The position numbers and the translations under genes are program-made. Under the pieces are notes generated by a model. The model ran no database searches. It worked only from the letters and a program-made list of their open reading frames with translations, and had not been told where the DNA came from. From contig NZ_SGWX01000001.1 of NCBI RefSeq assembly GCF_004216535.1, positions 3,534,001 through 3,598,000 of the forward strand: a stretch of DNA of 64,000 nucleotides. Direction: 5' to 3'. Below are positions 4,398 to 52,771 of the stretch, one piece after another (position 1 is the first letter of the stretch; each line of letters begins with the position of its first letter). Origin of the DNA: Xylanimonas ulmi (GTDB lineage Bacteria > Actinomycetota > Actinomycetes > Actinomycetales > Cellulomonadaceae).

Positions 4398-5455
4398 GGC
4401 TGAATCATGACATTGTTGTGACGTCCGTACTGGACGTCGACCGCGCTGTGCGTGAAGCCCGCGCGCCTGTAGACCGCGAGGGCCGCGGCGTTGTCGCCGT
4501 CGACATAAAGCACCGCGCGGCGGGCCCTGCCGGTCAGGTGCGCGAGCCCCGCGCGGGTCAGCGCCGAGCCGAGCCCGCGGCCCGCGTGGGCGGCGTCGAC
4601 GCCGACGGCGTAGATCTCGCCGTCGTCGGCCAGACCGCCGTGAGCGCCGCCCTCGACGAGCCCTTCGACCTTGGTCCAGATCGAGCCTGCGAGCGTGCCG
4701 TCGGGCGCCTCGGCGAGCAGGAGCCCGGCCGCGTCGAACCACGGCTCGGCCATGCGGTCGCGCAGGTCGGCGACCGTGAGCCGGCCCTGCTCGGGGTGCG
4801 CGGCGAAGGCGCGCGCGTTGAGCGCGACCCAGGCGGCGTCGTCGCGCCCGGGGACGAACGGCCGCAGGGTGTACCCGCCGGCGAGGGGGGTTGAGCCTGT
4901 CGAGACCCGGTCGGGGTGGGTGGTTTCGACGGGCTCAACCACCGGGGCGGGCTCCACCACCGGGGCGGGCTCAACCACCGGGGCGGGCTCAGGCGCCGGG
5001 AGGGGCATGGTGAGGAACAGCAGCTCGCGCACGACGACGTAGCCGGCGCTCGCCGCGAACGCGCGGGCGGGCGCCAGATCGCCGTGCGCCCACACCCGCA
5101 ACGCCTTGCCGCGCTGGCCGGGCGTGCCGCCGAACTGGGGCAGGGCGGCGTCGCGCTCGGCGGTGCGCAGCAGCAGCCGCCCGACGCCGCCGCGCCGGTG
5201 CTGCGGGTGCACGACCAGTTCGGCGCTCGCCTCGCCGCCGCCCCGGTCGATCTGCGCGTAGCCGATCGCCTGCCCGGACTTCGACCGCACCAGCGCGTGC
5301 GTCAGCCAGCCCTCGTCGGCGCGCAACCGCAACAACGGCTGCTCAGACAGCGGAGCGACGCCGTCGGCCCGGCTCGCGGCGTCGGCGAGGTCGCGCACGG
5401 CGTCGGCGTCGGCGGCAGAGAGCGGACCGATCTGCAGAGGAACGGGCAAGCGCAT
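4394..5455 (-). CDS. mshD: Mycothiol synthase (double GNAT) with repeat-derived linker
   Basis: A 353-residue protein with two GNAT acetyltransferase domains. It would acetylate Cys-GlcN-Ins with acetyl-CoA in the last step of mycothiol synthesis. The N-terminal GNAT covers about residues 5-145 ([19 protein letters not shown]). The C-terminal GNAT covers about 190-353 ([19 protein letters not shown]) and ends NNVMIQP. Between them, residues about 154-189 are a low-complexity linker built from the dispersed repeat (VVEPAP triplets, VEPVETT, VSTGST). Family members normally have a much shorter interdomain link. The ATG at 5455 is chosen because upstream in-frame residues resemble nothing. It overlaps ppk1 by 4 bp. 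Confidence 0.9.
4889..4994. repeat. Dispersed-repeat cluster A inside mshD
   Basis: Two 19-bp copies of the dispersed repeat face each other: GGTTGAGCCTGTCGAGACC at 4889-4907 and GGTTTCGACGGGCTCAACC at 4922-4940. They pair as inverted arms with two mismatches around a 14-nt spacer. They are followed to about 4994 by three copies of an 18-bp unit like ACCACCGGGGCGGGCTCA. The whole block keeps mshD open and encodes its interdomain linker. The 18-bp unit recurs, reverse-complemented, beside the copy in tmk. Confidence 0.9.
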
Positions 5456-5525
5456 GGCCCCATCGTCCCCCACGGCCGCCGGGATGAAGCCTGGGGTGAA
5501 AAGCCGGGCGCTGCGCCACGGCGGC

Positions 5526-5555
5526 TTGCCCGGCTGCCGACGATCGATCTGGTAA
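5526..5555 (+). promoter_or_regulatory. Possible promoter of the LPXTG surface-protein gene
   Basis: In the 225-bp divergent gap between mshD and the surface protein, TTGCCC (5526-5531) and TGGTAA (5550-5555, extended by T) are 18 bp apart in a locally less GC-rich stretch. This is weak evidence from base pattern only. The rest of the gap shows nothing clear except the ribosome-binding stretch AGGAAGGCGAGG just before the GTG at 5681. Confidence 0.25.
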
Positions 5556-5680
5556 TCGAGGCACGCCGAGGCTCGAAGTCCCTCGGCACTCTCGCCGGGA
5601 CGCCCTCGCCGGGCCGCAGCACCACCGCGGACCGAGGAGAGCGCGTCGCTCCGGGAGACCAGGAAGGCGAGGCATCTCCA

Positions 5681-8600
5681 GTGACCAGACAAGTCGTCAA
5701 CACCGACCGACGAGGCCACTGGAGCGCGGCCCGTCGGCGCCTGAGCGCGCCGCTCGCGCTCGCCGTCATGCTCGCGCTCGCCGTCGTCGCTGTGGCCGGA
5801 GGCCTCTTCGCCACACCCGAGCAGGCGCGGGCGGAGAGCGGCCCGGCCAACAGTTGGGTGCGAGGCGAGCAGACCTGGTACGCGTACGTCCAGGCGGGAG
5901 AGACCTTCTCCGCCGACTTCACCTTGACTGGTCAGGATGCGGGGGTGGGTTGGGGCGACAACTCCCGCGTTCAGGTGAAGGATCCCCAGGGCAACGTGGT
6001 CAAGACGTGCGACTTCACGTATAACTCCACGAGGGTGACGGAATGCAGGTACACGTCAGGCCCTCAGGCGACTGCGGGCGTCTTCAGTGTGTCGCTCGGG
6101 AAGCTCCCGGGGAACACATCTTCGAGCCCCCTTGGTCGGCCGATCCTCGCATGGGATGTCAGCGTGACGCACGGAGCGGAGCGAAAGTCTGGCCGCGTCT
6201 GGTCCGAGCAATTCGTGATGGAGGACTCGCCGTCGACGCCTGTCGACCTGACGCTCTTCTACCAGACGGTGTCAGGGTTCACCTATCGGGCGGATCATGT
6301 GGGCATGGTCGGGATCGCCTCGCGATACGTCTCCAGCGCCTTCGGGAACGTGCACGCTGAGGACGTCCCAGGAGAGGGTCAGCCGAAGAAGTGTGACTCG
6401 GCCTATCAGTCGATCCCCAACAACTCTCTGCGGGGGAGCAACAAAAACCTCGCGCCGGGGTACAGCGAGCTCGGGATTCCGGCCGACAAGACGGGATGCA
6501 AGTTCACGCCGTTCAAGATCTTCTTCGAGGAGCCGAGTAAGGATCTTCCTGCCGAAGCGACCCTGCCCGGAAGTGACTCGCCGGCCTGGCTTCGCGACGC
6601 GCCCATGGAAGCCGAAGACGTCCAGGTGACTGACTTCACGTTCGAGCCCGCGTCGCCGGGCTCCCGTGCCGGGACCATCTCCTTTCGGATCCCGCGGCAC
6701 GAGGGCGTCGCGCGCGTCCAGGTCGACGTCAACGACAACGGCGAGTTCGACGACGAGAACGACCGCGAGTTCCAGACGCGTGTCCTGGCCGGACAGGACG
6801 GCAAGGGCGAGCTGGTGACGATCGCGTTCAACGGCATGGACGCGAAGTCCGTTGCGATCGCGCCGACCACACCCCTTGCGGTGCGCGTCACCGTCGACAG
6901 GATCGGCGAGGTTCATTTCACGGCCATCGACCTCGAGGTGCTCGCAAACGGCCTGAAGGTCGAGCGCCTCAACGGATGGCAGCCCGGCCCAAGCGGCCTG
7001 TCCTGGGACGACTCGATGATCGAAGAGCAGCACAACGGCGCCGTCAAAAAGTGCTCCAGGACCGCCGCGACCACGGGAGATGGGGTGGACAGCAGCCAAG
7101 GAGTGCACGGCTGGAACGAGTGCGAATCCGGCACCAACGTCGAGCCGTGGACCTCTCCGAACCCTGGGCACATGGGCTCCTGGGGCAATCTCGCCGCGAT
7201 CGACAACTGGACGAGCATCCCGGTGGACCACGAGATCATCGTCGAGATCCCCGCGTTCAAGATCTCCAAGACGTCCAGCCCCGCGACGGGTGCTGCCGTC
7301 ACTCCGGCCGAGCGGATCGAATACTCGATCACGGCGGAGCCCGTGCAGTACTCGCATCCGGGTGACGTGAACGCCTCGAACCCCAGGTGGGTCCCGGCCA
7401 CCACGTGGAGCGGGCGGTACGTCGACTCCGCCGCCTCGGTCGCCGACGGCGCCACCATCGACTGGGATAGCCTCAAGAGCTCTCCCGCGGCGCACAGCAA
7501 GCTGGAGCCGAACACGACGTCGAACCAGTTCACATGGACCGGCGAGGACGTGCCGATCGGCCCGCCCGTCGTGACGAGCTACAGCGCGACGGTCAAACCG
7601 GTGGCCGAACAGGGCGAGTCGGGTCTGCTGCACAACCGGGCCGACATCCAGGCGTCGAACTTCGAGCAGCCCAAGGAGTGCATCAAGGATTTGTGCGGCG
7701 AGACGAGGCACGCCCTGCTGGAGGTCGAGAAGTCGTCGACGCCGACGGACGGGCAGGACGTCGCCCCCGGGCAAGAGGTCGCGTACACGATCACCTTCAC
7801 CAACCGAGGCTCACAGAGGGCGCCCGTCGACTATGAGGACCGCATCGCGGACGTCGTGGACGAGGCGGTGGTGAACGCCGCCTCCCTCACCGCGACGAAC
7901 GGACTGACGGCCGAGTGGAACGCTGAGGGGACGATCATCAGCGTGAAAGGCGGGCTGCCGGCGTCGAACGCCTCCGGGCCGGCGACGGGGACGGTCACCT
8001 ACACCGTGAAGGTCAAGGACGCAGGGTTCAAGAACGGCACGCTGCGCAACTACGTCGTCAGGCCCACTGCGGACACCCCCGAGGCGTGCGACCCGAAGGA
8101 CGTGCTGTGCACCGAGCATCCGATCACGGGCGGCTACACGGTCACCAAGACCTCCGATCCGGAGTCCGGCGTGTACGTCTCGCCTGGCAACGTGGTGAAG
8201 TACACCGTCACCGCGGTCGGGACGGGCACCGGCGCCACGGGCATCTCCCTGACCGACGACCTCACGAACGTCCTCAAGCACGCGAACTTCACCACGGAAT
8301 CGGCGTCCCTCAAGGTCGGGAAGGCTGACCCGGCGCCGGTCAGCGACCCGGGCACGGAGCAGAAGCTCGTCGCGGGCCCCTTCGACCTCGCGGAGGGCGA
8401 GACCGCGACTCTGACCTACGAGGTCGTCGTCAAGCTCGACGCCTGGTCGAAGGCCCTGGCCAACGTGGTGACCGGCGTCGACGAGAATGGCAAGCCGCCC
8501 GCGACGTGCGACCCGTGCGCCACGCGCACGCCGGTGACGGCGCGCATCGAGATCCTCAAGGTCGGCCGCGGGATCAACGGTGCGGGCCCGCTGGGAGGCT

Positions 8601-9052
8601 CGGCCTGGACGGTGCACAAGGACGTCGCCGGCGCGATGGGCGCCGAGTTGGAGTCACCGCGAGTGACGCCAATCTCCGTCGACGGGCAGGTGCAGGTCGG
8701 CAGGTTCGAGTTCACCGAAGCCCTCCCGGGCACGTATTGGTTGATGGAGACCCAGACGCAGGCCGGCTTCTCACTCCTGGCGGCGCCGGTGCGGTTCGTC
8801 ATCGGCGACGACGGCACTGTCAGCCTCCCGGACCAGCTCGCCCATGGCCAGGCCGTGTCCGTCGCGGGAAATAGTGGCGTGGCAGTCATCACGGTGGAGA
8901 ACACCGCGGCGGTCATCCTGCCCCGCACCGGCGACTCGACGGGCGACGGACCGCACGTGATGGTCGGCGCGAGCGTACTCGTGGTCGCGATGTCCGCCAT
9001 CGCGCTGCGCGAGCTGCGGCGCCGAGGCGCCGCAAGGACGCGGCGCGCATGA
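5681..9052 (+). CDS. LPXTG-anchored surface protein with DUF11-like and SpaA-like domains
   Basis: A 1123-residue secreted, cell-wall-anchored protein. The GTG start follows a purine-rich AGGAAGGCGAGG stretch and gives an Arg-rich n-region, a hydrophobic core ([20 protein letters not shown]) and a likely cleavage after ARA near residue 50. An N-terminal beta-rich region follows, including an acidic segment with Asp/Asn-Gly pairs ([17 protein letters not shown]). Three isopeptide or DUF11-like repeats come next, starting near [19 protein letters not shown] and [10 protein letters not shown] SpaA/prealbumin-like domain ([10 protein letters not shown] to [10 protein letters not shown]) precedes the sorting signal LPRTG, a hydrophobic helix and the tail [14 protein letters not shown]. 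It may be an adhesin or a pilus-tip-like protein. No sortase gene lies in the window. Confidence 0.85.
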
Positions 9053-9074
9053 GGCCGGACTGAGCGGCGCCGCA

Positions 9075-9118
9075 CGTCGGTCGAGCCTGTCGAGTGGTCT
9101 CGACAGGCTCGACCGACG
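9075..9118. terminator. Perfect 20-bp hairpin made of two repeat copies
   Basis: A perfect inverted repeat: left arm 9075-9094 (CGTCGGTCGAGCCTGTCGAG), loop TGGT, right arm 9099-9118. Each arm contains a variant of the dispersed repeat (GTCGAGCCTGTCGAG). It lies between the convergent 3' ends of the surface-protein gene and acsA, so a bidirectional terminator role is plausible. There is no U-tract on either side, so function is inferred from position and stem strength. Confidence 0.7.
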
Positions 9119-9140
9119 GGGGTGCGGCTCGTGCGGGGCG

Positions 9141-11141
<2,001 letters not shown>

Positions 11142-11214
11142 CGGAGAAACCTCCTGCGTCGTCGCGAACGACCCCGCTCCGTCGCGGTGCCGCGTTCGCG
11201 AGTGTAGACCGTTG

Positions 11215-19427: not shown

Positions 19428-22046
19428 TCAGCTCGGCGCGTGCGCGAGCACGGCGTCGAGGAGCGTGACCGCCGCGGCCTTGTCGAGCGGGCTGTTGTAG
19501 GTGCCGCACTTGGGCGACTGCACGCACGCTGGGCAGCCGTGATCGCACGGGCACGCGGCGATGGCGTCGCGGGTGGCCCGCAGCCACACCGCGCCAAGGT
19601 GGTAGCCGCGCTCGGCGAACCCGGCCCCGCCCGGATAGGCGTCGTAGACGAACACGGTCGCCTGGCCGGTGTCGGCGTGCAGGTCGGTCGAGATGCCGCC
19701 CAGGTCCCACCGGTCGCACGTCGCGAGCAGGGGAAGCAGGCCGATCGACGCATGCTCGGCGGCGTGCAGGGCGCCCGGGACGACGTCGGGGTCGAGGCCC
19801 GCGGCGCGCAGCACGAAGTCGGGCGCCGACCACCAGACGGCCGTGGTCGGCAGCGAACGCTCGGGCAGGTCGAGCGGCTCGGTGCCGAGCACCTGCAGAT
19901 CGGGCAGGCGGCGGCGCTCGAAGCTGACGACCTGGCTCGTGACCTCGACCGGGCCCAGACCCCACGTGATCGGGCCCCAGGCGCGGGTGACCGTGGAGCC
20001 CGCGGTGGTGGAGTCCGCGGTGGTTGAGCCTGTCGAAACCACGCCGGCGGATGAGGTGGTTTCGACAGGCTCAACCGCCGGGGGTGGGGGTGGGGTGGTT
20101 TCGACGGGCTCAACCACCGTCGGATCCACCATCGGGGCGTCCTCGATGGCGATCGTCATGACCTCGCGCGACCACGTGCCGTGGTCGACGTCGCGGCGCA
20201 CCACGAGCGCGACCCGGTCGGTCAGGTCGAGGTGGTCGACGACGAACGTCGCGCCCTGGTGCACGTACACCGCGCCGTCGTGCACCTGACCGTCGGCAGA
20301 CCCGGCGTCGACCGTCCCGAGCAGTCGGCCCGTGGGCGCCTCGACCACGCGCACCGGTCGCCCGCCCGACCCGCGCAGGTCGGCCATCGAGGCCGCGGGC
20401 TGCGCGTGCGTCCAGTACCAGCCCGATGGCCGGCGGCGCAGCGCCCCGCCCTCGACGAGCTCGTCGAGCACCGCCCGCACGTGCCCCGGCTCGCCGAAGC
20501 GGGCCAGGTCCTCGGTGCGCAGGGGGACCTCCTGCGCGGCGGCGCACAGTTGTGGGGCCAGCACGTATCGGTTGGCCGGATCGAACACGGTCGCCTCGAG
20601 CGGCGCGTCGAACACCGCCTCGGGATGGGTCACCAAGTAGGTGTCGAGCGGGTCCTCGCGCGCGACGAACGCGACCAGCCCGTCGGCCCCGGCCCGCCCG
20701 GCGCGCCCCGCCTGCTGCCACAGCGACATGCGGGTGCCCGGCCAGCCAGCGATGAGCACCGCGTCGAGTCCCGAGATGTCGACGCCGAGCTCCAGCGCGT
20801 TGGTCGTGGCCAGGCCCAGCAGCGCGCCCGTGCGGATCGCCTGCTCCAACTCGCGGCGCTCCTCGGGCAGGTACCCGCCGCGGTAGGCGGCCACCCGCCG
20901 GGACAGGTCCGTGGACACCGGCCGCAGATGGTCGCGCGCGGCCTGCGCCACCGATTCGGCGCCGCGGCGCGAGCGGGTGAAGGCGAGGGTGCGCGCCCCA
21001 TGCGCGGCCAGGTCGGCCAGCAGGTCGGCGACCTCGGCGGTCGCCGTGCGGCGCGGGTGGTCGGACCCACCCTCCACCGTGACGACAGGCGCCTGCTCAC
21101 CCTCGGCGTGGCCGGGGTCGAGCGGGTCGGGCAGCAGCCACGGGTCGTCGTCACCCACGCCCGCCCCGGCGCCCGCCCCGGCGCCCGAGCGCGTGAACCC
21201 CGACGACGCCACCTCGGGCGGCTGCCACAGCGCGACGGTCCTCCGCCCCGACGGCGAGGCGTCCGCGACCACGGCCGCGACGTCGTCGGCCCCCACCCCG
21301 AGCAGGCGCGCGGCGCTCGCGGCGGGCTCGGCCGACGTCGCGCTCGCGACGACGAAGGTGAGCGTGCCGCCGCGGTGATGCTCCACGAGCCGGGCCAGGC
21401 GCCGCAGCACCAGCGACACGTGCGCGCCGAACACGCCGCGGTAGGTGTGCCCCTCGTCGACGACGACGTAGCGCAGCGCCCGCAGGAGCCGCGCCCACCG
21501 GCGGTGGTTCGGCAGCAGCGAGAAGTGCAGGAAGTCGGGGTTGGTCAGGACGACGTCGGCGTAGTCCTGCGTCCAGCGGCGCTCCTCGGTGGGGGTGTCG
21601 CCGTCGCACGTCGCCACGCGCAGGCCGCGGCCCGCGCCGTCGGGCATGGCGGCCAGCACGCGTTCGAGAGCGGCGAGCTGGTCGGCCGCGAGCGCCTTGG
21701 TCGGCGACAGGTAGAGCACGGCGCCGCGCCGCTGCGCGGGCAGGTCACGCCCGACGGCGGTCAGGGCGGGCAGCCAGAACGCGAGCGACTTGCCCGAGCC
21801 GGTCGACGTCGCCAGCGCGACGTGCCTGCCCTCCCACGCCGCCGACGCGGCGACCGCCTGGTGCGCCCAGGGGCGTTCGACGCCGAGCGACCGATACGCC
21901 GCGACCAGCGCCGGGTCGGCCCACGCGGGCCAGTCGGCGCTGACGCCGGGGCGTGCCGGCAGCGTGCGCACGTGCGTCAGCCGGTCGGCGCGCGCGCCGC
22001 CCGCGAGCAGCACGTCGAGCAGCGGGTGGGCGGCGACGTCGGACAC
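19428..22046 (-). CDS. MrfA/YprA-like DEAD/DEAH-box helicase with C-terminal zinc-binding domain
   Basis: An 872-residue superfamily 2 helicase. Q/Walker A region: ALATSTGSGKSLAFWLPAL (residues about 80-98). Motif Ib region: VVLTNPDFLHFSLLP. Walker B: VVVDEGHTYRG. Second RecA domain: TLAFTRSRRGAESVA and WQQAGRAGRAGADG. The C-terminal DUF1998/MZB domain has a four-cysteine cluster in CPCDHGCPACVQSPKCGTYN. B. subtilis MrfA with this domain repairs mitomycin crosslinks. The dispersed repeat supplies a linker at residues about 644-675. The GTG at 22046 puts the first conserved block at the usual distance. A homologue lies at the equivalent place in mycobacteria. Confidence 0.9.
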   Translation of the reverse strand: MSDVAAHPLLDVLLAGGARADRLTHVRTLPARPGVSADWPAWADPALVAAYRSLGVERPWAHQAVAASAAWEGRHVALATSTGSGKSLAFWLPALTAVGRDLPAQRRGAVLYLSPTKALAADQLAALERVLAAMPDGAGRGLRVATCDGDTPTEERRWTQDYADVVLTNPDFLHFSLLPNHRRWARLLRALRYVVVDEGHTYRGVFGAHVSLVLRRLARLVEHHRGGTLTFVVASATSAEPAASAARLLGVGADDVAAVVADASPSGRRTVALWQPPEVASSGFTRSGAGAGAGAGVGDDDPWLLPDPLDPGHAEGEQAPVVTVEGGSDHPRRTATAEVADLLADLAAHGARTLAFTRSRRGAESVAQAARDHLRPVSTDLSRRVAAYRGGYLPEERRELEQAIRTGALLGLATTNALELGVDISGLDAVLIAGWPGTRMSLWQQAGRAGRAGADGLVAFVAREDPLDTYLVTHPEAVFDAPLEATVFDPANRYVLAPQLCAAAQEVPLRTEDLARFGEPGHVRAVLDELVEGGALRRRPSGWYWTHAQPAASMADLRGSGGRPVRVVEAPTGRLLGTVDAGSADGQVHDGAVYVHQGATFVVDHLDLTDRVALVVRRDVDHGTWSREVMTIAIEDAPMVDPTVVEPVETTPPPPPAVEPVETTSSAGVVSTGSTTADSTTAGSTVTRAWGPITWGLGPVEVTSQVVSFERRRLPDLQVLGTEPLDLPERSLPTTAVWWSAPDFVLRAAGLDPDVVPGALHAAEHASIGLLPLLATCDRWDLGGISTDLHADTGQATVFVYDAYPGGAGFAERGYHLGAVWLRATRDAIAACPCDHGCPACVQSPKCGTYNSPLDKAAAVTLLDAVLAHAPS
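20022..20115. repeat. Dispersed-repeat cluster C inside the helicase gene
   Basis: Three 19-bp copies: GGTTGAGCCTGTCGAAACC at 20022-20040, the exact reverse complement at 20058-20076, and GGTTTCGACGGGCTCAACC at 20097-20115. The first two form a perfect 19-bp inverted pair with a 17-nt spacer. In the helicase frame they read VEPVETT (twice) and VSTGST, separated by a Pro run. Confidence 0.92.
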
Positions 22047-33264: not shown

Positions 33265-35034
33265 ATGAGCGCCGCCCCCGCCGCCGACGAGGCTGCCCTC
33301 GCCGCGCTGCGCGCCGACCTGGAGTCCGCGGCCTTCACGGTCGACGGCGTCGCCGACCTCGTGGGCGAGCTCGGCGCGGCCGCGCTGCGCCGCGAGCAGG
33401 CACTGCCCGCCCGACGCGCTGTCGAGGCCGCCGTCGCGGGCCGGGCGCCGCGCGCGTGGGACCCGCGCGCCACGCTCACCCGCCTGTTCCTGCTCGGTGG
33501 TCACACGCCGCGCGCCGCGCTCGACGCCGCGCTGCCCGCCACGGGCGCCGAGGGTCTGGTGCGCGCCGGGCTCGCCGTCGCGGCCGGTCAGGGCGACGAC
33601 GACGCGGTGCGCGCCGCCGTCGACCTCGCGCCCTACGCGGCCACCGACGCCGCGGGCGACGTGCGCTGGTGGCTCGCCTCCGACCTGGGCGAGCTCGCGC
33701 GCGGCGGCGCCATCGCCAACGACCATGTGCTCGGCGCGGGTGGCGCGTCGCTCACGCTCGGGCAGGTCACCGTGCGCGAGCGGGTCGGGCGGGTGCTCGA
33801 CCTGGGCACGGGCTGCGGCATCCAGGCGTTGCACGCCTCGCGGCACGCCGACACCGTGGTGGGCACCGACATCTCGGCGCGGGCGCTGGCGTTCGCGCGG
33901 TTCAACGCGGGGCTCAATCTCGGTGACGCTGACGCGTTCGACCTGCGGCTCGGCTCGATGCTCGAACCCGTGGCGGGCGAGGAGTTCGACCTGGTCGTCT
34001 CCAACCCGCCGTTCGTCATCACGCCGCACGCGGGCGCCGCGGGACTCGCGATGCGCGAGGCTCTGGGCGACTTCGAGTACCGCGACGGCGGGCGTGCGGG
34101 CGACGACCTGGTGCGCGACCTGATCGTGGCGGTCGGCTCGGTGCTCGCGCCCGGCGGCACGGCCCAGCTGCTGGGCAACTGGGAGCACCGGCGCGGCCAG
34201 GAGTGGACCGAGCGCGTGGGCTCGTGGCTCGACGCGTCAGGGCTCGACGGCTGGGTCATCCAGCGTGAGGTGCTCGACCCGGCCGAGTACGCCGAGACCT
34301 GGATCCGCGACGGGGGGACCACCCCGGAGCGCGACCCCGACGCGTGGGCCGGCGCGTACGGCGCGTGGCTCGACGACTTCGCCTCACGCGACGTCGAGGC
34401 GATCGGGTTCGGGATCGTCACACTGCGCCGCCCGGGCGGGCCGGAGGGTGAGACTGTCGCGCCCAGGGGTGGGGTTTCGACAGGCTCAACCAGCGGTGGG
34501 GTGGGTGGGGTTTCGACAGGCTCAACCAGCGGTGGGGTGGGCGGGGTTTCGACAGGCTCAACCAGCGGTGGGGTGGGCGGGGTTTCGACAGGCTCAACCA
34601 GCGGTCGGGTTCGGCTGCGGCGCCTGGAGGAGCACACGGGCGCGGTGCGCCAGCCGCTCGGCCCGCACCTGGCGGCGTCGCTTGCGGCCCACGAGTGGCT
34701 CGCCACCCGCACCGACGACGCGCTCGTGGCCGCCCGCCTCGTGGTGGCGCCCGATGTGACCGAGGAGCGGTACCTCACGCCCGGGATGCCCGACCCGAAC
34801 GTCGTCGTCATCCGGCAGGGCGACGGACTGGGGCGCGGGGTGCACGCCTCGACGGCGCTGGCCGCACTGGTCGGCGCGTGCGACGGCGAACTCACCGTCG
34901 GGCAGATCATCGGGGCGCTCGCGGCCCTGTTCGAGCAGGCCGGGGCGTTGGGCGCGACGCCAACTGCGCTGCGCGACGAACTGCTTCCCGCGGTGCGCGG
35001 CCTGGTGCGCGACGGGTTCCTGCGCCCCGCGTGA
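33265..35034 (+). CDS. SAM-dependent methyltransferase (N-terminal DUF7059-like) with repeat-derived linker
   Basis: A 589-residue class I methyltransferase. The N-terminal 135 residues are an all-helical domain. The SAM-binding motif is VLDLGTGCGIQALHAS (about residues 177-192), and the catalytic motif LVVSNPPFVI is of the N-methyltransferase (PrmC/RsmC-like) type. A C-terminal domain (residues about 446-589) follows a linker of four 12-residue VSTGSTSGGVGG-type repeats (residues about 403-445) made by the dispersed repeat. The target is unknown. ATG 33265 lies 13 bp after the lipoprotein stop, so the genes may be cotranscribed. Confidence 0.85.
   Translation: MSAAPAADEAALAALRADLESAAFTVDGVADLVGELGAAALRREQALPARRAVEAAVAGRAPRAWDPRATLTRLFLLGGHTPRAALDAALPATGAEGLVRAGLAVAAGQGDDDAVRAAVDLAPYAATDAAGDVRWWLASDLGELARGGAIANDHVLGAGGASLTLGQVTVRERVGRVLDLGTGCGIQALHASRHADTVVGTDISARALAFARFNAGLNLGDADAFDLRLGSMLEPVAGEEFDLVVSNPPFVITPHAGAAGLAMREALGDFEYRDGGRAGDDLVRDLIVAVGSVLAPGGTAQLLGNWEHRRGQEWTERVGSWLDASGLDGWVIQREVLDPAEYAETWIRDGGTTPERDPDAWAGAYGAWLDDFASRDVEAIGFGIVTLRRPGGPEGETVAPRGGVSTGSTSGGVGGVSTGSTSGGVGGVSTGSTSGGVGGVSTGSTSGRVRLRRLEEHTGAVRQPLGPHLAASLAAHEWLATRTDDALVAARLVVAPDVTEERYLTPGMPDPNVVVIRQGDGLGRGVHASTALAALVGACDGELTVGQIIGALAALFEQAGALGATPTALRDELLPAVRGLVRDGFLRPA
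34473..34599 (+). repeat. Dispersed-repeat cluster D: four copies at exact 36-bp spacing
   Basis: GGTTTCGACAGGCTCAACC occurs at 34473-34491, 34509-34527, 34545-34563 and 34581-34599, identical in all four and spaced exactly 36 bp. The intervening 17 bp (AGCGGTGGGGTGGGNGG type) is nearly identical too. All copies have the same orientation, unlike cluster C. Confidence 0.95.
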
Positions 35035-41751: not shown

Positions 41752-42695
41752 TGACCCGACCCCCCGCTGGTTGAGCCCGTCGAAACCCCGGTGGTTGAGC
41801 CTGTCGAAACCCCGCCGGTGGTTGAGCCTGTCGAAACCGCCCCCGGCGCGGGCACCGCCGCGTGCCGTCCCGTGAGCGGCCCGCTCGTCGTCGCGCCGTC
41901 GCGCGGGTCGTCGGCCTCGTCGTCGGCGCCGACCGCCGCGAGGATCTGCTCGCGCGTCGGCGCGTCGAGGTCGGCGGTGATGCGCCCGTCCCCGAGCAGC
42001 AGCACGCGGTGGGCGTAGGTGGCCGCGCGCGGGTCGTGCGTGACCATGACGACGGTCTGGCCCAGCTCGTCGACGCTGCGGCGCAGAAACGTGAGCACCT
42101 CCCGTGAGGAGCGCGAGTCGAGGTTGCCCGTGGGCTCGTCGGCGAACACCACCGACGGGCGGCCCACCAGCGCCCGCGCGCACGCGACGCGCTGCTGCTC
42201 GCCGCCCGACAGCGCGTTCGGCCGGTGGTGGAGGCGGGCGCGCATGCCGACGGCGTCGACCACCTCGTCGAACCAGGCGCGGTCGACCGGTGTGCGGGCG
42301 ATGTCGAGCGGCAGCGTGATGTTCTCGGCCGCCGTGAGCGTGGGCACGAGGTTGTAGGCCTGGAACACGAACCCGATGCGGGTGCGGCGCAGCCGCGTGA
42401 GCTGGCGCTGCGACAGCGCCGAGACCTCGACGCCGTCGACGACGACGGCGCCGCTCGTCGGCTGGTCGAGGCCGGCCATGCAGTGCATGAGCGTCGACTT
42501 GCCTGAGCCGGAGGGGCCCATGATGGCCGTCAGCCGCCCCTGCGCGAAGTCGACCGAGACGCCGTCGAGCGCCCGCACCTGGGTCGGCCCGGTCCCGTAG
42601 GTGCGCACGAGGTCGCGTGCGTATGCCCGAGCGGGCGGATCGGTGGCCGCCTGTTCGTCCTGCGCCGCGCGATGCCGTCCCCGAGCCAGATCCAT
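41748..42695 (-). CDS. ABC transporter ATP-binding protein (MacB/LolD type) with repeat-derived tail
   Basis: A 315-residue ATPase pairing with the downstream permease. Walker A is GPSGSGKSTLMHCMAG, the Q-loop FQAYNLVPTLTAAEN, the signature NALSGGEQQRVACARAL, Walker B VVFADEPTGNLDSR and the switch His MVTHDPR. The C-terminal residues about 286-315 are a low-complexity tail with VSTGST three times, supplied by the dispersed repeat. LolD-type ATPases normally end about 40 residues earlier. ATG 42695 is the first plausible start. It is divergent from the sigma-factor gene at 42840. Confidence 0.92.
   Translation of the reverse strand: MDLARGRHRAAQDEQAATDPPARAYARDLVRTYGTGPTQVRALDGVSVDFAQGRLTAIMGPSGSGKSTLMHCMAGLDQPTSGAVVVDGVEVSALSQRQLTRLRRTRIGFVFQAYNLVPTLTAAENITLPLDIARTPVDRAWFDEVVDAVGMRARLHHRPNALSGGEQQRVACARALVGRPSVVFADEPTGNLDSRSSREVLTFLRRSVDELGQTVVMVTHDPRAATYAHRVLLLGDGRITADLDAPTREQILAAVGADDEADDPRDGATTSGPLTGRHAAVPAPGAVSTGSTTGGVSTGSTTGVSTGSTSGGSGQ
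41769..41838 (-). repeat. Dispersed-repeat cluster E at the 3' end of the ABC ATPase gene
   Basis: Three direct copies on the plus strand: GGTTGAGCCCGTCGAAACC (41769-41787), GGTTGAGCCTGTCGAAACC (41793-41811) and the same at 41820-41838. Spacings are 24 and 27 bp. Read on the minus strand they encode VSTGST three times. The cluster ends 18 bp before the GTGA overlap with the permease gene. Confidence 0.94.
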
Positions 42696-45759: not shown

Positions 45760-46623
45760 TCAGACCGCGTCGGTCGCGATGTCGAGGCCCAGGTCCAGGC
45801 TGCGGACCCCGTGCGTGAGCGCGCCGACCGAGATGACGTCGACGCCCGTGCGCGCGACCTCGCCGACCGTGTCGAGTGTGATGCCGCCCGACGCCTCGAC
45901 GATGGCCCGCCCCGCGACCTGTGCGACACCGGCCCGCAGGTCGGCGAGCGAGAAGTTGTCGAGCATGATCGTGGTGACCCCCGCCGCGACGACCTCCTCG
46001 ACCTGGTCCAGGCGGTCGACCTCGACCTCGATGGTCGCGGTGTGGGGCAGCCGTGCGCGGGCGGCGCGGATCGCGTCGCCCACCGAGACGCCCTGCGCGG
46101 CGAGCACCGCGAGGTGGTTGTCCTTGGCCAGCACCGCGTCCGAGAGCGAGTAGCGGTGGTTGTGCCCCCCGCCGTCGCGCACCGCGGCGCGCTCCAGCAC
46201 CCGCAGGCCCGGCGTCGTCTTGCGGGTGTCGACCACGCGCGCCCGCGTCCCGGTGACCGCCTCGACGTAGCGGGCGGTCGCCGTGGCGACGCCCGACAGA
46301 CGCTGGACGAGGTTGAGCCCCACGCGCTCGGCGCGCAGCACCGCGCGGGCGTCCCCGTCGACGACGGCGAGCACGTCGCCCCCGGCGAACCGGTCGCCGT
46401 CGGCGGCGTGCGGGTCGACGACGGCGGCGGGGTCGAGCAGGGTGAACGTCCGCGCGAAGACGGTCAGGCCCGACGCGACGCCCGGCTCGCGGGCGACGAG
46501 CGCCGCGCGCGCCCGCGCGCCCTCGGGCAGGAACGCCTCGCTGGTGAGGTCGCCCCAGGGCGCGTCCTCGGCGAGGGCGCGCGTGAGGATGTCGTCGACG
46601 GCGGCGGCGGGGGTCAGGCTCAT
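45760..46623 (-). CDS. nadC: Nicotinate-nucleotide pyrophosphorylase (carboxylating)
   Basis: A 287-residue quinolinate phosphoribosyltransferase converting quinolinate and PRPP to nicotinate mononucleotide. Motifs: EDAPWGDLTSEAF, LNLVQRLSGVATATARYVEAV, VVDTRKTTPGLRVLERAAVRDGG followed by HNHRYSLSDAVLAKDNH, IEVEVDRLDQ, IMLDNFS and EASGGITLDTV. All signature residues are present. Its ATG overlaps the nadB stop as ATGA. Confidence 0.96.
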   Translation of the reverse strand: MSLTPAAAVDDILTRALAEDAPWGDLTSEAFLPEGARARAALVAREPGVASGLTVFARTFTLLDPAAVVDPHAADGDRFAGGDVLAVVDGDARAVLRAERVGLNLVQRLSGVATATARYVEAVTGTRARVVDTRKTTPGLRVLERAAVRDGGGHNHRYSLSDAVLAKDNHLAVLAAQGVSVGDAIRAARARLPHTATIEVEVDRLDQVEEVVAAGVTTIMLDNFSLADLRAGVAQVAGRAIVEASGGITLDTVGEVARTGVDVISVGALTHGVRSLDLGLDIATDAV

Positions 46624-48242: not shown

Positions 48243-49543
48243 CAGCGGACCGCCCCCTTCGTCTCGGGGCCGGCGGTGGTCGGGGTGGGCTTGGGGCGGG
48301 CCGCGAGCATGCGCTCCAGGGCCACGCGGGCGTCGGCGGCGACGTCGTCGGGCACCGTGACCTGGTTGACGGTGCGGCCGGCCACGAGCTCCTCCAGGAC
48401 CCAGGCGAGGTAGCCCGGGTGGATGCGGTACATGGTCGAGCAGGGGCACACGACGGGGTCGAGGCAGAAGATCGTGTGTTGCGGGAACTCGGCGGCGAGC
48501 CGGTTGACCATGTTGATCTCGGTGCCGATCGCGAAGGTCGTCGGCTCGGTCGCGCCCGCCACGGCCTTGCGGATGTAGTCGGTCGACCCGGCCTCGTCGG
48601 CGGCGTCGACCACCGGCATGGGGCACTCGGGGTGCACGATGACGCGCACGCCGGGGTGCGCGGCCCGTGCGCGGTCGATCTGGTCGACCGTGAAGCGCTT
48701 GTGCACCGAGCAGAACCCGTGCCAGAGGATGACGCGGGCGTCCAGCAGGTCGTCGCCCGTCGAGCCGCCGAGCGGCTTGCGCGGGTTCCACATCGGCATC
48801 CGCTCGATCGGCACGCCCATCTTCTTGGCGGTGTTGCGGCCCAGGTGCTGGTCGGGGAAGAACAGCACGCGCTGGGCGCGCTCGAACGCCCACTCCAGCA
48901 CCGTCTCGGCGTTCGAGGACGTACACACGATGCCGCCGTGGCGCCCGCAGAAGGCCTTGAGGTCGGCGGCCGAGTTCATGTACGTCACGGGGATCACGGG
49001 CACGCGGCCGTCGGCGTCGGGCTCGGTCCCGTACAGCGCCTCGAGCTGGGCCCAGGCGTCCTCGACCGAATCGATGTCGGCCATGTCGGCCATCGAGCAC
49101 CCCGCGGCGAGGTTGGGCAGGATCACCGCCTGGCCGGGCTTGGCGAGCACGTCGGCCGTCTCGGCCATGAAGTGCACGCCGCAGAAGACGATCGCCTCCG
49201 CGTCGGGCACGGTCTGTGCGGCGTTCGCGAGCTGGAACGAGTCTCCGAGGAAGTCGGCGTGCGCCACGATCTCGTCGCGCTGGTAGAAGTGGCCGAGCAC
49301 GACGACGCGCGAGCCCAGCGCCTCGCGCGCGGCCGTGATGCGCGCGCGCAGCTCGTCGTCGGACGACTCGCGGTACTCGGCCGGCAGGGCGCCCTGGCGG
49401 GGGGCCGACGGCGGTGCGACGTCGCCGAGCGAGGCGCCCGGGCCGTAGCCGGGCACGGTGTCGAAGTCCCACGGACCCTGCGCGAGGTCGGGCGCGCAGG
49501 TGGCGGCCGGCTCGGACTGGACGAGGAGGTTGACCGAGTTCAT
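48242..49543 (-). CDS. nadA: Quinolinate synthase
   Basis: A 433-residue [4Fe-4S] enzyme condensing iminoaspartate with dihydroxyacetone phosphate. Motifs: VVLGHFYQRDEIV, DSFQLANAA, IVFCGVHFMAETADVL, LAAGCSMADM, VTYMNSAADLKAFCG, VCTSSNAE, FFPDQHLGRNTA, VHPECPMPV, STDYI and a late CPCSTM. The cluster-ligating Cys candidates are in FCGVHF, CTSSN and CPCSTM. An N-terminal extension of about 70 residues precedes the core. The ATG overlaps the nrtR-like stop as ATGA. Confidence 0.96.
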   Translation of the reverse strand: MNSVNLLVQSEPAATCAPDLAQGPWDFDTVPGYGPGASLGDVAPPSAPRQGALPAEYRESSDDELRARITAAREALGSRVVVLGHFYQRDEIVAHADFLGDSFQLANAAQTVPDAEAIVFCGVHFMAETADVLAKPGQAVILPNLAAGCSMADMADIDSVEDAWAQLEALYGTEPDADGRVPVIPVTYMNSAADLKAFCGRHGGIVCTSSNAETVLEWAFERAQRVLFFPDQHLGRNTAKKMGVPIERMPMWNPRKPLGGSTGDDLLDARVILWHGFCSVHKRFTVDQIDRARAAHPGVRVIVHPECPMPVVDAADEAGSTDYIRKAVAGATEPTTFAIGTEINMVNRLAAEFPQHTIFCLDPVVCPCSTMYRIHPGYLAWVLEELVAGRTVNQVTVPDDVAADARVALERMLAARPKPTPTTAGPETKGAVR

Positions 49544-50259
49544 TGCTCTTCTCCTGAGGGAGGGAACGGGTCGTCGGCGCCCAGCGGACCGTTGTCCGCG
49601 AGGGCGGCCGACGTGTCGAAGCGGTACAGGCGGGGCGGCCGGTGTCGGCCGCCGGTCAGGCGCTCGCCGGTGGGGACGACGGCGCCGGAGGCCTCCGCCT
49701 GGCGGCGGAAGTTCGCGGGGTCGAGCTCGCGGTCCAGCACGGCCTCGTGGACCTGGCGCAGCTCGCTGAGGGTGAAGGTCTCGCCCAGGAGGCCCTGCGC
49801 GATGGCGGTGTACTCGACCTTGGTGCGCAGGCGCCACAGGGAGTACTCGACGATGCGGTCGTGGTCGAACGCCAGGTGGGGGATGTCGTCGGCGACGAAC
49901 CAGCGGACGTTGACCGAGTCGAACGCGGCGTCGGTGCGCTCGCCGATCTGCTCGGGCCGCACCAGCGCCCAGTAGACGACGCTGACCACGCGGCCGGTGG
50001 GGGAGCGGTCGGGGGCGCCGAAGGTGTAGAGCTGCTCCAGGTAGGAGGGGCGCACGCCCGTGGTCTCCACGAGCGTGCGGCCCGCCGACGCGGCGAGCGA
50101 CTCGTCGGGGTCGACCCAGCCGCCGGGCAGCGCCCATCGTCCGGCGTAGGGCTCGCGCGTGCGCCGGACCAGCGGGATCGACAGCGCCGGGCGCTGGGTG
50201 GCGGGGTGTGGGCGTAGCGCGAAGATGACCGTGGACACGGCGAGGCCGATGGCGCGCAT
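49540..50259 (-). CDS. nrtR: NrtR-like regulator of NAD synthesis (degenerate NUDIX plus winged helix)
   Basis: A 239-residue protein. Residues 1-135 are a NUDIX domain whose box is broken (LPGGWVDPDESLAASAGRTLVETTGV: the catalytic R-E-x-x-E-E pattern reads R-T-L-V-E-T), so hydrolysis is unlikely. The C-terminal winged helix (YTAIAQGLLGETFTLSELRQVHEAVL to RPPRLYRFD) is typical of NrtR, a repressor sensing NAD metabolites such as ADP-ribose. It heads the nadABC-nifS operon, with ATGA overlap to nadA. It may bind the AT-rich inverted repeat in the upstream gap, acting as its own repressor. Confidence 0.85.
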   Translation of the reverse strand: MRAIGLAVSTVIFALRPHPATQRPALSIPLVRRTREPYAGRWALPGGWVDPDESLAASAGRTLVETTGVRPSYLEQLYTFGAPDRSPTGRVVSVVYWALVRPEQIGERTDAAFDSVNVRWFVADDIPHLAFDHDRIVEYSLWRLRTKVEYTAIAQGLLGETFTLSELRQVHEAVLDRELDPANFRRQAEASGAVVPTGERLTGGRHRPPRLYRFDTSAALADNGPLGADDPFPPSGEEQ

Positions 50260-50286
50260 GCACCCCCCTGGGGATGGCTTTGGTGG

Positions 50287-50337
50287 TCTGACCTAAGTAA
50301 GTGTCAGGGTGACTAGAACAAATCTTACACTTCAGGT
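50287..50337. promoter_or_regulatory. Candidate NAD-operon promoter and operator
   Basis: A locally AT-rich island in the 134-bp divergent gap. On the minus strand TTGTTC (complement of 50316-50321), a 16-bp spacer and TACTTA (complement of 50294-50299) form a reasonable promoter for nrtR-nadABC. Inverted 6-mers AAGTGT (50299-50304) and ACACTT (50327-50332), flanked by ACCT and AGGT, bracket the -35 region. They are the best operator candidate for the NrtR-like protein. Confidence 0.45.
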
Positions 50338-50393
50338 CGGAGCGACTACAACGCCGTCCGTCACGTGGACGCGCCGCGGGTTACCGTCGGGGC

Positions 50394-51449
50394 ATGCCCG
50401 AACCCCGCTCCTTCGCACCCCGCCTGACCGCCGCCGACCTCGACGGCGCCGTGCCCGACCTGCTCGACGCCCCCGCGATCGGCTGGGGCGTGCTCGGCGC
50501 CGGGTCGATCGCCGCCTCGTTCAGCGACGGCGTGCGCGAGCGCACCCGCGCCCGCGTGAGCGCCGTCGGCTCGCGCTCGGCGGCCAAGGCTCAGGAGTTC
50601 GCCGCGGCGCACGCGCCAGGCGCCCGCGCGCACGGTTCGTACGAGGACCTGGTCGCCGACTCCGACGTCGACGTCGTCTACATCGCCACCCCGCACTCGC
50701 ACCACCTGGAGCACGCGCTGCTCGCCGTGCGCGCGGGCAAGCACGTGCTGGTCGAGAAGCCGCTGACGCGCTCGGCCGCCGAGTCGCGCGTCCTGCTCGA
50801 CGCCGCGCGCGAGGCAGGCGTGTTCCTCATGGAGGCGATGTGGACGCGGTTCCTGCCGCACGTCGCCGCGCTGCGCGGCGCCATCGCGCGCGGCGAGATC
50901 GGCGAGGTCGTCACGGTCGAGGCCGAGTTCGACGTGTTCTTCCGCTACGACCCCGCCCACCGGCTGTTCGCGCCCGAGCTCGCGGGCGGCGCGCTGCTCG
51001 ACCTGGGCGTCTACCCGGTCGCGTTCGCGCACGACCTGCTCGGGGCGCCGTCGTCGGTCACCGCCCGTGGGACGCGCGCGGCGACCGGGGTCGACGACCA
51101 CGTCGCGATCGTCCTGGAGTGGGACGGCGGGCGCCACGCCGTGCTGCACACGTCGTCGCGCGCCGCAGGCCCGCACGCCGCGACCATCATCGGCACGCGC
51201 GGACGCATCGAGGTGCCGCGCGAGTTCTTCACGCCCGCCGACATCGTGGTGACGCGCGAGGACGGCACGTCCTGGACGTTCACCTCCCCGCGCGGGGAGG
51301 GCAAGGCCTACGAGGCGGCCGAGGTCGCGCGGCTGGTGACGGCGGGCGCGACGGCGTCGCCGCGGCACTCCTGGCAGGACACGCTGGAGGTCATGGCGAT
51401 CCTCGACGAGGCGCGCCGCCAGGTGGGCGTGGTCTACCCCGGCGAGTGA
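50394..51449 (+). CDS. Gfo/Idh/MocA family oxidoreductase
   Basis: A 351-residue NAD(P)-dependent dehydrogenase. Rossmann motif IGWGVLGAGSIAASFSDGV near residue 25. The family motif with catalytic Lys is GKHVLVEKPLTRSAAES, and MEAMWTRFLPHVAALR and GGALLDLGVYPVAFAHDLLG are typical of dihydrodiol or sugar dehydrogenases. Substrate unknown. ATG 50394 has no strong ribosome site. It is divergent from the NAD operon and convergent with the PPOX gene. Confidence 0.9.
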   Translation: MPEPRSFAPRLTAADLDGAVPDLLDAPAIGWGVLGAGSIAASFSDGVRERTRARVSAVGSRSAAKAQEFAAAHAPGARAHGSYEDLVADSDVDVVYIATPHSHHLEHALLAVRAGKHVLVEKPLTRSAAESRVLLDAAREAGVFLMEAMWTRFLPHVAALRGAIARGEIGEVVTVEAEFDVFFRYDPAHRLFAPELAGGALLDLGVYPVAFAHDLLGAPSSVTARGTRAATGVDDHVAIVLEWDGGRHAVLHTSSRAAGPHAATIIGTRGRIEVPREFFTPADIVVTREDGTSWTFTSPRGEGKAYEAAEVARLVTAGATASPRHSWQDTLEVMAILDEARRQVGVVYPGE

Positions 51450-51461
51450 CTCGCGCAGGTG

Positions 51462-51860
51462 TCAGCGGGTGAAGCGGCGGCCCGACATGGCCGTCGGCGT
51501 GATGCGCAGCCAGACGGGCTTGTGCGTGTCGAGGAACGTCAGCAGGCCGGTGGCCTCGGCGTCGGTGATGTCGTCGTCGTGCTCGAGGATCTCGGCCGCG
51601 CCCTTGAGCACGACGCTGTAGGCGAGGTCCGCGCCGACCTCGTCGACCTCGAAGGCGACGTGCCCGTTGACCGCGATCTCGGCGAGCTTCGAGCCCGGGG
51701 CGGTGCGCACGAAGATGCGGCGGTTGGTGGCCGCGAAGTTCACCGGGAAGATCTCGACATCGCCGCCGACGGCGGTGGCGAGCCGCCCGATCTGATGCTT
51801 GCCGAGGATCTCCCACGTCTCGTCCTCGGTGAGCTCTCTGATGTTCGGCTGATCCGACAT
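51462..51860 (-). CDS. Pyridoxamine 5'-phosphate oxidase-fold protein (PPOX class)
   Basis: A 132-residue split-barrel flavin/F420-binding protein. The core is LGKHQIGRLATAVGGDVEIFPVNFAATNRRIFVRTAPGSKL, followed by HVAFEVDEVG and AYSVVLKGAAEILEHDDD. This is the common actinobacterial short PPOX family, which may bind FMN or F420 or be a heme-utilisation-like relative; no substrate can be named. ATG 51860 follows GGGGAGGACGT. The gene ends 12 bp from the convergent oxidoreductase stop. Confidence 0.87.
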   Translation of the reverse strand: MSDQPNIRELTEDETWEILGKHQIGRLATAVGGDVEIFPVNFAATNRRIFVRTAPGSKLAEIAVNGHVAFEVDEVGADLAYSVVLKGAAEILEHDDDITDAEATGLLTFLDTHKPVWLRITPTAMSGRRFTR

Positions 51861-52039
51861 ACGTCCTCCCCGGCGATTTGGGCGTTGCGCCTCGATGGGC
51901 GCGACCTGGTGCGCTATCGCCTCCAGTGTGGACCGACCACAACGGCCGAGCGACCCCCGCGGCGCATACGAGAACGTGAGGTGGACCACTGCCCGCCTGG
52001 CCGCAGGCCGTGTCGTCGGCCCCGGCTAGGGTGTCCGGA

Positions 52040-52771
52040 GTGAGGACACCCGGGTACTTCGTGTCGTTCGAGGGCGGCGACGGCGGCGGCAAGACGACGC
52101 AGGCGCGCCTCCTGGGCGACTGGCTCGCAGAGCGCACCGGCCGCGAGGTCGTGGTCACCCGCGAGCCCGGCGGCACCGCGCTGGGCGCCGAGTTGCGCCA
52201 GGCGATCCTGCACGGCCAGGACATGGACCCGCGCACCGAGGCGCTGCTGTACGCCGCCGACCGCGCGCACCACGTCGCCTCGCTCGTGCGACCCGCGCTC
52301 GACCGTGGCGCCGTCGTGGTCACCGACCGGTACCTCGACTCCTCGGTCGCCTACCAGTCGGGTGGGCGCGAGCTGTCGGCCGACGAGGTGGAGCGGCTGT
52401 CACTGTGGGCCGTCGAGGGCCTGCTGCCCGACGTGACGGTGCTGCTCGACGTCGACCCCGCGACGTCGGCGGCTCGCATGACCGGCGACCCCGACCGGCT
52501 CGAACGCGCCGGCGACGACTTCCACCGCCGCACCCGCGAGGCGTACCTGCGCCGCGCCGCCGCGGACCCCGAGCGGTGGGTCGTCGTCGACGCCGCGGGC
52601 TCGGTCGAGCAGGTCCACGCCCAGGTGCGGGACGCGGTCGCCACCCGCCTGCGCCTTGCGGTGGTTGACCCCGCCCCGGTGGCTGACCCCGCCCCGGTGG
52701 TTGACCCCGCCCCGGTGGTTGAGCCTGTCGAAACCACCACCCCCGCCCCGAGCCTGGACGCCGCGCCATGA
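52040..52771 (+). CDS. tmk: Thymidylate kinase with repeat-derived C-terminal tail
   Basis: A 243-residue dTMP kinase. P-loop [16 protein letters not shown] at residues 9-24, then VTREPGG, the DRY motif [16 protein letters not shown], and a lid region ([20 protein letters not shown]). The catalytic core ends near residue 205. The final 38 residues are a Pro/Val/Asp tail ([27 protein letters not shown]) derived from an 18-bp tandem repeat and one copy of the dispersed repeat. GTG 52040 is preferred over GTG 52031 because GTG 52040 sits 6 nt after AGGGTG. The stop overlaps holB as ATGA. Confidence 0.94.
52660..52735 (+). repeat. Dispersed-repeat cluster F in the tail of tmk
   Basis: About three and a half copies of an 18-bp unit (GGTGGTTGACCCCGCCCC and variants) run into one perfect GGTTGAGCCTGTCGAAACC at 52717-52735. 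The 18-bp unit matches, reverse-complemented, the one beside cluster A in mshD. Both read as V-x-P-A-P type hexapeptides. Confidence 0.9.

What the first reader, a model, noticed from the sequence alone, without database searches (positions are those of the whole stretch)
4889..52735. A 19-bp dispersed repeat family colonises coding sequences in frame
GGTTGAGCCTGTCGAAACC or close variants appear about 15 times in six clusters: mshD, the 9075 hairpin, the helicase, the methyltransferase, the ABC ATPase and tmk. Five of six clusters lie inside essential or housekeeping genes and never break them. Of six reading frames one contains TGA; in the genes only VEPVET and VSTGST readings are used, always as interdomain linkers or C-terminal tails. 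Similar VEPVETT peptides are common in actinobacterial proteins (recalled, not searched). How the repeat spreads is unknown to me, and no mobile-element ends or transposase lie beside it.
Basis: partly seen in the sequence, partly recalled or inferred. Interest (0 to 1): 0.75.

Follow-up and report, generated by a model that had tools for sequence, protein, structure and literature searches.

The report
Gene-invading hairpin repeat shared across phyla
A 25-base hairpin-forming DNA repeat has multiplied to hundreds of copies in this bacterium, and the same letters occur in very distant bacteria; here most copies lie between genes, but many sit inside genes in reading frames that add a soft linker, and no REP-type transposase was found to go with it.

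Summary
The 19-mer occurs 14 times in the window (0.03 expected) and 253 times genome-wide. The unit is larger: (C)GGTGGTT-GAGCCTGTCGA-AACCACC, an imperfect hairpin whose arms covary around the core TGAGCYTGTCGAA. Copy number within the genus runs from 0 to 555. The window inserts are missing from low-copy congeners; one high-copy congener carries different arrays in three of the same genes. The exact 25-mer also occurs in Spirochaetes, Bacteroidota and Lentisphaerae. Of the copies examined in two genomes 61-65% are intergenic, enriched between convergent genes. In-gene copies read mostly VEPVET or VSTGST, in Actinobacteria and in low-GC loci alike. In one congener 22 of 39 inverted pairs share their spacer with another pair in unrelated flanks, so REPIN-like units move whole. 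In two genomes truncated copies are left halves (60 versus 1), mostly ending at the loop just upstream of full copies; elsewhere the asymmetry is weaker (16 versus 8). Y1/RAYT transposases are absent from the actinobacterial carriers tested and do not track copy number in Treponema; other transposase families were not tested. I read it as a new REP-like superfamily of selfish hairpins, kept in genes only where benign. The mobilising enzyme is unknown.

The parts
4889..4907 (+). full element core (1 mismatch) in mshD linker, reads VSTGST in the gene
   Evidence: gene 4394-5398 (-)
4922..4940 (-). full element core (1 mismatch) in mshD linker, reads VEPVET
4941..4980 (-). two half-element units ([12 protein letters not shown]) upstream, in gene sense, of the full copy at 4922-4940
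4885..4990 (-). repeat block in mshD between the two GNAT domains; ordinary short linker in G004, G005, G008; a different array in G010
9075..9118 (.). intergenic inverted pair (perfect hairpin) of a diverged copy between convergent genes; scored half at 9096-9114 (-)
20022..20040 (+). full exact core in helicase linker, VSTGST
20058..20076 (-). full exact core in helicase linker, VEPVET; inverted pair with 20022-20040
20097..20115 (-). full core (1 mismatch) in helicase linker, VEPVET
34473..34491 (-). full exact core, array copy in methyltransferase, VSTGST
34509..34527 (-). full exact core, array copy in methyltransferase, VSTGST
34545..34563 (-). full exact core, array copy in methyltransferase, VSTGST
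34581..34599 (-). full exact core, array copy in methyltransferase, VSTGST
34465..34605 (+). four-copy 36-nt-period block between MTS and DUF7782 domains; absent from all 5 congeners compared
41769..41787 (+). full core (1 mismatch), C-terminal tail of ABC ATPase, VSTGST
41793..41811 (+). full exact core, C-terminal tail of ABC ATPase, VSTGST
41820..41838 (+). full exact core, C-terminal tail of ABC ATPase, VSTGST
52660..52713 (+). three diverged half-element-like units, 18-nt period, upstream of the full copy in the tmk tail
52717..52735 (+). full exact core, C-terminal tail of thymidylate kinase, VEPVET; tail absent from G001, G004, G005, G008; own array in G010

Best explanation
It is a non-autonomous, REP-like mobile element: a 25-26-nt DNA hairpin with complementary arms and the conserved core TGAGCYTGTCGAA. 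It is carried singly, in arrays, and as inverted pairs of about 70 bp that can be copied to new sites as one unit. Inferred: a trans-acting enzyme recognises the single-stranded top-strand hairpin and breaks it in the loop (GAGC|C|TGT). A free 3' end there can slip back and re-copy, which would make the half-element arrays and may be part of spread. Selection then keeps copies between genes (above all convergent ones, seldom divergent ones) and, inside genes, mainly those in linkers or tails in the two frames that give soft hydrophilic peptides. Shown here: presence/absence among congeners, patchy copy number, hairpin covariation, shared pairs in unrelated flanks, one-sided truncation in two genomes, frame bias, absence of Y1 transposase in the actinobacterial carriers tested. 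Not shown: the enzyme and the insertion chemistry.
For: Copy number within one genus 0-555. Window inserts missing from congeners, with different arrays in three of the same genes of G010. Exact 25-mer in Spirochaetes, Actinobacteria, Bacteroidota and Lentisphaerae. Arms covary: pairs 1-3 are Watson-Crick in 98, 96 and 89% of 133 distinct arm pairs against shuffle maxima of 84, 65 and 67%. In G010 22 of 39 inverted pairs share their spacer with another pair, and their flanks are no more alike (32% identity, maximum 43%) than those of all pairs (32%). Left halves 60, right halves 1; 38 of 60 intergenic. Among partial copies of 8 nt or more beside a full copy, 51 of 68 left ones stop at nt 11-12 and only 1 is a right one. 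Frames 50 of 51, 85 of 94, 40 of 46. Same-strand in-gene spacings divisible by three 12 of 12 and 40 of 44, opposite-strand 10 of 11 and 13 of 15; intergenic 20 of 63 and 41 of 111.
Against: No mobilising enzyme was found, and only the Y1 family was tested. Insertion ends and target duplications could not be read, because relatives are about 80-93% identical and the linkers are hypervariable. Stretches were picked by exact or dense copies, so counts are not a random sample. Left-half arrays may be plain replication slippage that says nothing about transposition, and the asymmetry is weaker outside the two genomes (16 left, 8 right). In the own genome few pairs share spacers (6 of 33, several only because the spacer is short). 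Shuffles do not correct for relatedness of the loci.
Confidence: 0.72

Rival explanations
1. Ordinary GTAG-type REP/REPIN mobilised by a RAYT (Y1 transposase), present or recently lost.
For: Inverted pairs, arrays, convergent-gene preference and patchy spread are REP/REPIN traits (PMC3733652 sections seen). A GTGG lies in the 5' arm. 5 of the 12 non-actinobacterial carriers do have a Y1 gene over the cut-off.
Against: No Y1_Tnp in 11 of 11 genus, family and order genomes, including the 555-copy one (two of them under 80% complete), nor in the 6 other actinobacterial carriers. In 118 Treponema genomes Y1 is in 2 of 15 with at least 10 copies and 26 of 103 others; at 5 copies or more it is 8 of 28 against 20 of 90. 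None of 22 fetched Y1 loci holds the core. GTGG is paired and replaced in other arms.
Confidence: 0.15
2. Protein-level origin: linker peptides VEPVETT and VSTGSTT expand as coding tandem repeats under selection.
For: Strong frame preference and arrays in linkers.
Against: 101 of 156 and 159 of 259 copies are intergenic, both strands are used, arms covary as DNA, and the 25-mer keeps its exact letters in hosts of 39% and 74% GC.
Confidence: 0.04
3. A functional host signal such as a DNA-uptake sequence or bidirectional terminator, maintained by selection.
For: High identity of the core and enrichment between convergent genes; uptake sequences also occur as inverted pairs and with frame bias in genes (recalled, not searched).
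Against: 0-555 copies within a genus, extra sequence rather than point changes relative to congeners, shared spacers of pairs, and different arms for the same core.
Confidence: 0.07

Closest known systems
REP / REPIN elements (GTAG superfamily) with RAYT/TnpAREP
   Same: Short imperfect hairpins, hundreds of copies, inverted pairs moving as units, arrays, preference for gaps between convergent genes, occasional in-frame intragenic copies.
   Different: No unpaired GTAG/GTGG foot, the conserved part is the loop-side core, no Y1 transposase in the actinobacterial carriers tested, same 25-mer in several phyla.
CGTC-tagged REPs (Di Nocera et al. 2013, PMC3733652)
   Same: Multi-phylum including Spirochaetes, no dedicated transposase, intragenic copies.
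   Different: CGTC tag, AT-starting 8-9 bp stem, 4-5 nt loop and CCA tail are lacking; clusters are frequent here, rare there.
Rickettsia palindromic elements (RPE)
   Same: Palindromic DNA found in frame in unrelated housekeeping genes and tolerated.
   Different: RPEs are described as about 150 bp and rickettsial (review PMC10969869, passages seen); this is 25 nt, with a defined core and two favoured frames, in several phyla.

Membership tests
GTAG REP | unpaired GT[AG]G foot at the 5' end of a hairpin | tested here: not met
   GTGG present but paired, and replaced in other arms (GGTCAT, GGTCCT, GTAGGT); feature as in PMC6006769 section 12
GTAG REP | association with a RAYT / Y1 transposase gene | tested here: not met
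   0 of 11 genomes; 0 of 6 further actinobacterial carriers but 5 of 12 others over cut-off; no correlation in 118 Treponema; core absent from 22 Y1 loci
CGTC REP | CGTC/TGTC/CCTC tag, AT-starting 8-9 bp stem, CCA tail | tested here: not met
   consensus compared by eye with the text description; the paper's figure was not available
REPIN | two hairpins in inverted orientation copied as one unit | tested here: met
   33 and 41 plus-minus pairs against 7 and 13 minus-plus pairs; shared spacers 22 of 39 in G010 with unrelated flanks; weak in the own genome, 6 of 33
RPE-like protein-invading palindrome | in-frame insertion in unrelated housekeeping genes, absent from orthologues | tested here: met
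RPE | sequence membership in a rickettsial RPE family | not tested
   no RPE sequence was compared; described lengths differ
MITE of a DDE transposon | terminal inverted repeats plus target-site duplication | tested here: inconclusive
   ends fairly sharp in low-GC loci, duplications not readable
Known structured RNA (Rfam) | match at gathering score | tested here: not met
   only one tRNA in the window

The most novel reading that the evidence does not exclude
A third superfamily of bacterial REP-like hairpins, defined by the loop-side core TGAGCYTGTCGAA with free, covarying arms, that moves between phyla and is driven by an undescribed strand-specific hairpin-loop nuclease not related to Y1 transposases. 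Its insertions have repeatedly lengthened linkers of housekeeping enzymes in Actinobacteria and Spirochaetes.
Probability: 0.35. Interest if true: 0.8.

Novelty: new variant of a known kind. Interest (0 to 1): 0.63.

Why it matters
If right, a REP-like hairpin family spreads in high-GC Actinobacteria, whose Actinobacteridae one survey (PMC6006769, section 10 seen) reports to carry only the IS200-type subclass of Y1 genes, and is found letter for letter in several phyla. It would suggest that REP-like spread does not need RAYTs, give an in vivo mark of where the hairpin is broken, and be a natural experiment in how short DNA parasites lengthen protein linkers. The enzyme becomes searchable, because high- and low-copy members of the same genus are known.

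Tried and rejected
Strand bias: the first 50 listed places in G010 were all forward. Searches showed this to be listing order (163 forward, 180 reverse for a 24-nt form), so replication-strand bias was dropped.

REPtron search: ORFs within 1.5 kb of the core in fetched loci were clustered all against all (the 25 widest clusters were looked at). Recurrent clusters seemed to be repeat-bearing ORFs or ordinary proteins. One with five loci looks from its sequence like chemotaxis receptors; its Pfam check failed and was not repeated. No candidate enzyme. No transposase family other than Y1 was searched.

Phage or plasmid carrier: the 71-nt pair gave no match in 50,697 phage records and a 38% match in one plasmid record (Arthrobacter). 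The exact 19-mer is in 6 stretches of viral contigs.

Clean empty sites: T. bryantii against G436 and G070 (83% mean identity over the longer aligned pieces of T. bryantii and G436) and 30 ABC-F rows show presence/absence but no readable junction.

Floor effect: the left-half search needs 11 matching bases, so shorter breaks could not show. One search repeated it from 7 bases. Matches of exactly 7 are swamped by reverse-complement copies; from 8 up, 51 of 68 left partials beside a full copy still stop at 11-12.

Literature: searches for the element letters and the peptide and for related wording showed no description of this family in the listings seen; figures and most subscription papers are not searched. 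Papers: PMC3733652 (abstract; sections 4 part 1, 15, 17 part 1), PMC6006769 (abstract; sections 10, 12), PMC10969869 (passages); others only as listings and abstract starts.
Full report
Observation. One search finds 14 matches at up to 3 mismatches in 64,000 bases (expected 0.03). The genome holds 253 at up to 2 mismatches and 190 at up to 1, with none for the reversed control. Five window clusters lie inside called genes with Pfam-supported products and one is an intergenic hairpin.

What the unit is. I examined 156 of the 253 copies of the own genome and 259 copies in 520 kb of congener G010, in stretches chosen by exact or dense copies. The conserved stretch is (C)GGTGGTTGAGCCTGTCGAAACCACC, near invariant in the 19-nt core apart from one T/C position, and fading outside. 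In 97 exact copies from low-GC loci the strongest outside preferences are C or T just before it (92%), C almost absent just after it (2%), and T three bases before it (58%). As single-stranded DNA the 27-mer folds into an 8-bp stem on either strand. Scanning for TGAGCYTGTCGAA alone in loci L113-L289 gave 133 distinct arm pairs, 57 of them not GGTGGT. The three innermost positions pair as TA/CG, GC/CG/AT and GC/CG/TA in 98, 96 and 89% of cases, above all 1,000 shuffles; pair 4 is only slightly above (83 against at most 78%), pairs 5-8 not. These loci were mostly brought in by the GGTGGT form, so other arms are under-sampled, and relatedness is not corrected for. On the top strand GA/GA would face each other as tandem mismatches above a G-C pair and a 5-nt loop (inference).

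Spread. Of 59 genomes of the genus, family and order (own included) 13 have a copy at up to 1 mismatch. In the genus: 555 in G010, 190 in the own genome, 178 in G009 (65% complete), then 58, 47, 18, 4, 3, 2, 0, 0 (the two zeros are 72 and 77% complete). Outside it: 43 in one other genus of the family, 36 in another family, and single copies in two more. Of 296 genomes of the class 10 have the 15-nt core at all. Of the 80 with titles shown, 63 are Spirochaetes (mostly Treponema), 14 Actinobacteria (Cellulomonadaceae, Promicromonosporaceae, Propionicicella, Paraoerskovia, Micrococcaceae, Microbacteriaceae), 2 Bacteroidota and 1 Lentisphaerae; these are stretches, several from one genome. In 118 genomes of the genus of T. 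bryantii 55 have the GGTT-core-AACC form, from 1 to 84 copies. Because arms are free to change, identical arms in several phyla suggest transfer rather than constraint (inference).

Insertions. The methyltransferase block is absent from 5 of 5 congeners. The tmk tail is absent from 4 of 5, and G010 has a different array there. The mshD linker is short in 3 of 4, with an own array in G010. The helicase linker lacks the repeat in 3 of 4, with other copies in G010. The ABC tail lacks it in 5 of 5, with a G010 copy just after the stop codon. The junctions fall in sequence that differs between all congeners, so no clean ends can be read. In Treponema, an ABC-F linker carries VVEPVETT in T. bryantii (with VVSTGSTT behind it) and in one close relative, VVSTGSTT in a more distant one, and other linkers in the remaining rows of the 30 aligned. 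Two of those hold VPEPVEG, one also GPSTSSG, which fit the same core with other arms (inference).

Where copies are kept. A home-made codon-score gene caller (repeats masked from scoring) puts 101 of 156 copies of the own genome between genes, 51 in genes and 4 across ends; in G010 159, 94 and 6 of 259. The stretches are 88% coding. Gaps between convergent genes are favoured (71 of 97 copies against 39 of 125 gaps; G010 77 of 159 against 68 of 322) and divergent ones hold few (4 and 6). In genes the frames are VEPVET 26, VSTGST 24, GFDRLN 1 (own); VEPVET 57, VSTGST 28, GFDRLN 6, LSLSK 2, FRQAQ 1 (G010). By gene, 27 of 28 and 26 of 32 use only the first two. In low-GC loci the balance differs: 46 of 67 exact copies lie in frames open for 150 codons or more (an upper bound, as no gene calling was done there): VVEPVETT 21, VVSTGSTT 19, GGFDRLNH 5, WLSLSKP 1. 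Copies within an array are not independent, so the binomial values overstate certainty. Spacings tell the same story: in genes nearly all are multiples of three, between genes about a third. Of 10 proteins from low-GC loci four have the insert between recognised domains (TrpC-TrpF fusion, DEAD helicase before DbpA, ABC-F before its C-terminal domain, HsdR), three outside recognised domains, two inside one (PheT B5, pseudouridine synthase), and one has no recognised domain.

Pairs and halves. Plus-minus pairs outnumber minus-plus pairs (33 to 7; 41 to 13), peaking at 39 and 42 nt. In G010 the spacer of 22 of 39 pairs matches, with at most 3 mismatches in either orientation, that of a pair over 500 nt away. 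The 23 matches span 634 nt to 2.3 Mb, and the flanks of the matching pairs are 32% identical, no more than all pairs. In the own genome it is 6 of 33, several only because the spacer is short. Half-elements are one-sided: left halves without a right half 16 and 44, right halves without a left 0 and 1; 51 of 60 lie within 60 nt upstream of a full copy, 6 have one upstream. With another right-half pattern it was 0 and 2. Dropping the length floor, 51 of 68 left partials of 8 nt or more beside a full copy stop at nucleotide 11 or 12, the loop boundary, against 1 right partial. Eleven of 16 and 27 of 44 are intergenic, so coding selection does not explain the asymmetry. In a looser list 10 of 18, 15 of 49 and 6 of 16 are perfect tandem duplications of flank plus half. 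Among the other loci the asymmetry was weaker (16 left, 8 right). I infer a top-strand break in the loop whose 3' end slips back and re-copies; plain slippage is not excluded.

Mobiliser. Pfam Y1_Tnp is absent from the own genome and the ten relatives tested with it (control genomes ring in 10 of 14). In 18 other carriers 5 pass the cut-off (two Treponema, two Bacteroidota, the Lentisphaerae) and none of the 6 Actinobacteria does. In 118 Treponema genomes 28 have Y1 at E up to 0.001 (controls 5 of 14), and presence does not follow copy number (Spearman 0.03; 2 of 15 high-copy genomes against 26 of 103). None of the 22 Y1 loci fetched, each up to 3.4 kb, holds the core. Other enzyme families were not tested.

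Placement. It works like a REP/REPIN and, inside genes, like a Rickettsia palindromic element. It fails the tag and transposase tests of GTAG REPs and the tag, stem and tail of CGTC REPs as described in the text of PMC3733652, whose figures I could not see. I rate it a new variant of a known kind.

Noticed in passing
L289 (G070:C25:40001-60000), also L176 and L184: Related hairpins with the same outer arm and GAG but a longer inner part (GGTGGTTGAGTAGGCC...GGCCGTATCGGAACCACC type), so the core may itself be one of several loop forms.
   Followed up: no
L315, L317 (Treponema ABC-F linkers): Peptides VPEPVEG and GPSTSSG fit the same core with GGTCCC-type arms, suggesting sister families use the same linker.
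   Followed up: partly
L293, L296, L297, L299, L302-L304, L307 (ABC-F linker): A second recurrent linker sequence (SLPLA..KPSSATPS type) that looks like another DNA repeat family in Treponema.
   Followed up: no
L040 (G005): Helicase and methyltransferase orthologues of G005 split into pieces in tblastn, possible frameshifts or sequencing errors.
   Followed up: no
55654-55726: A tRNA gene on the + strand (Rfam RF00005).
   Followed up: no
G010 inverted pairs listed: Spacers of inverted pairs fall into a few families (GATCG-, GCTGGGA- and CGTCGG-like), some present in both orientations.
   Followed up: partly
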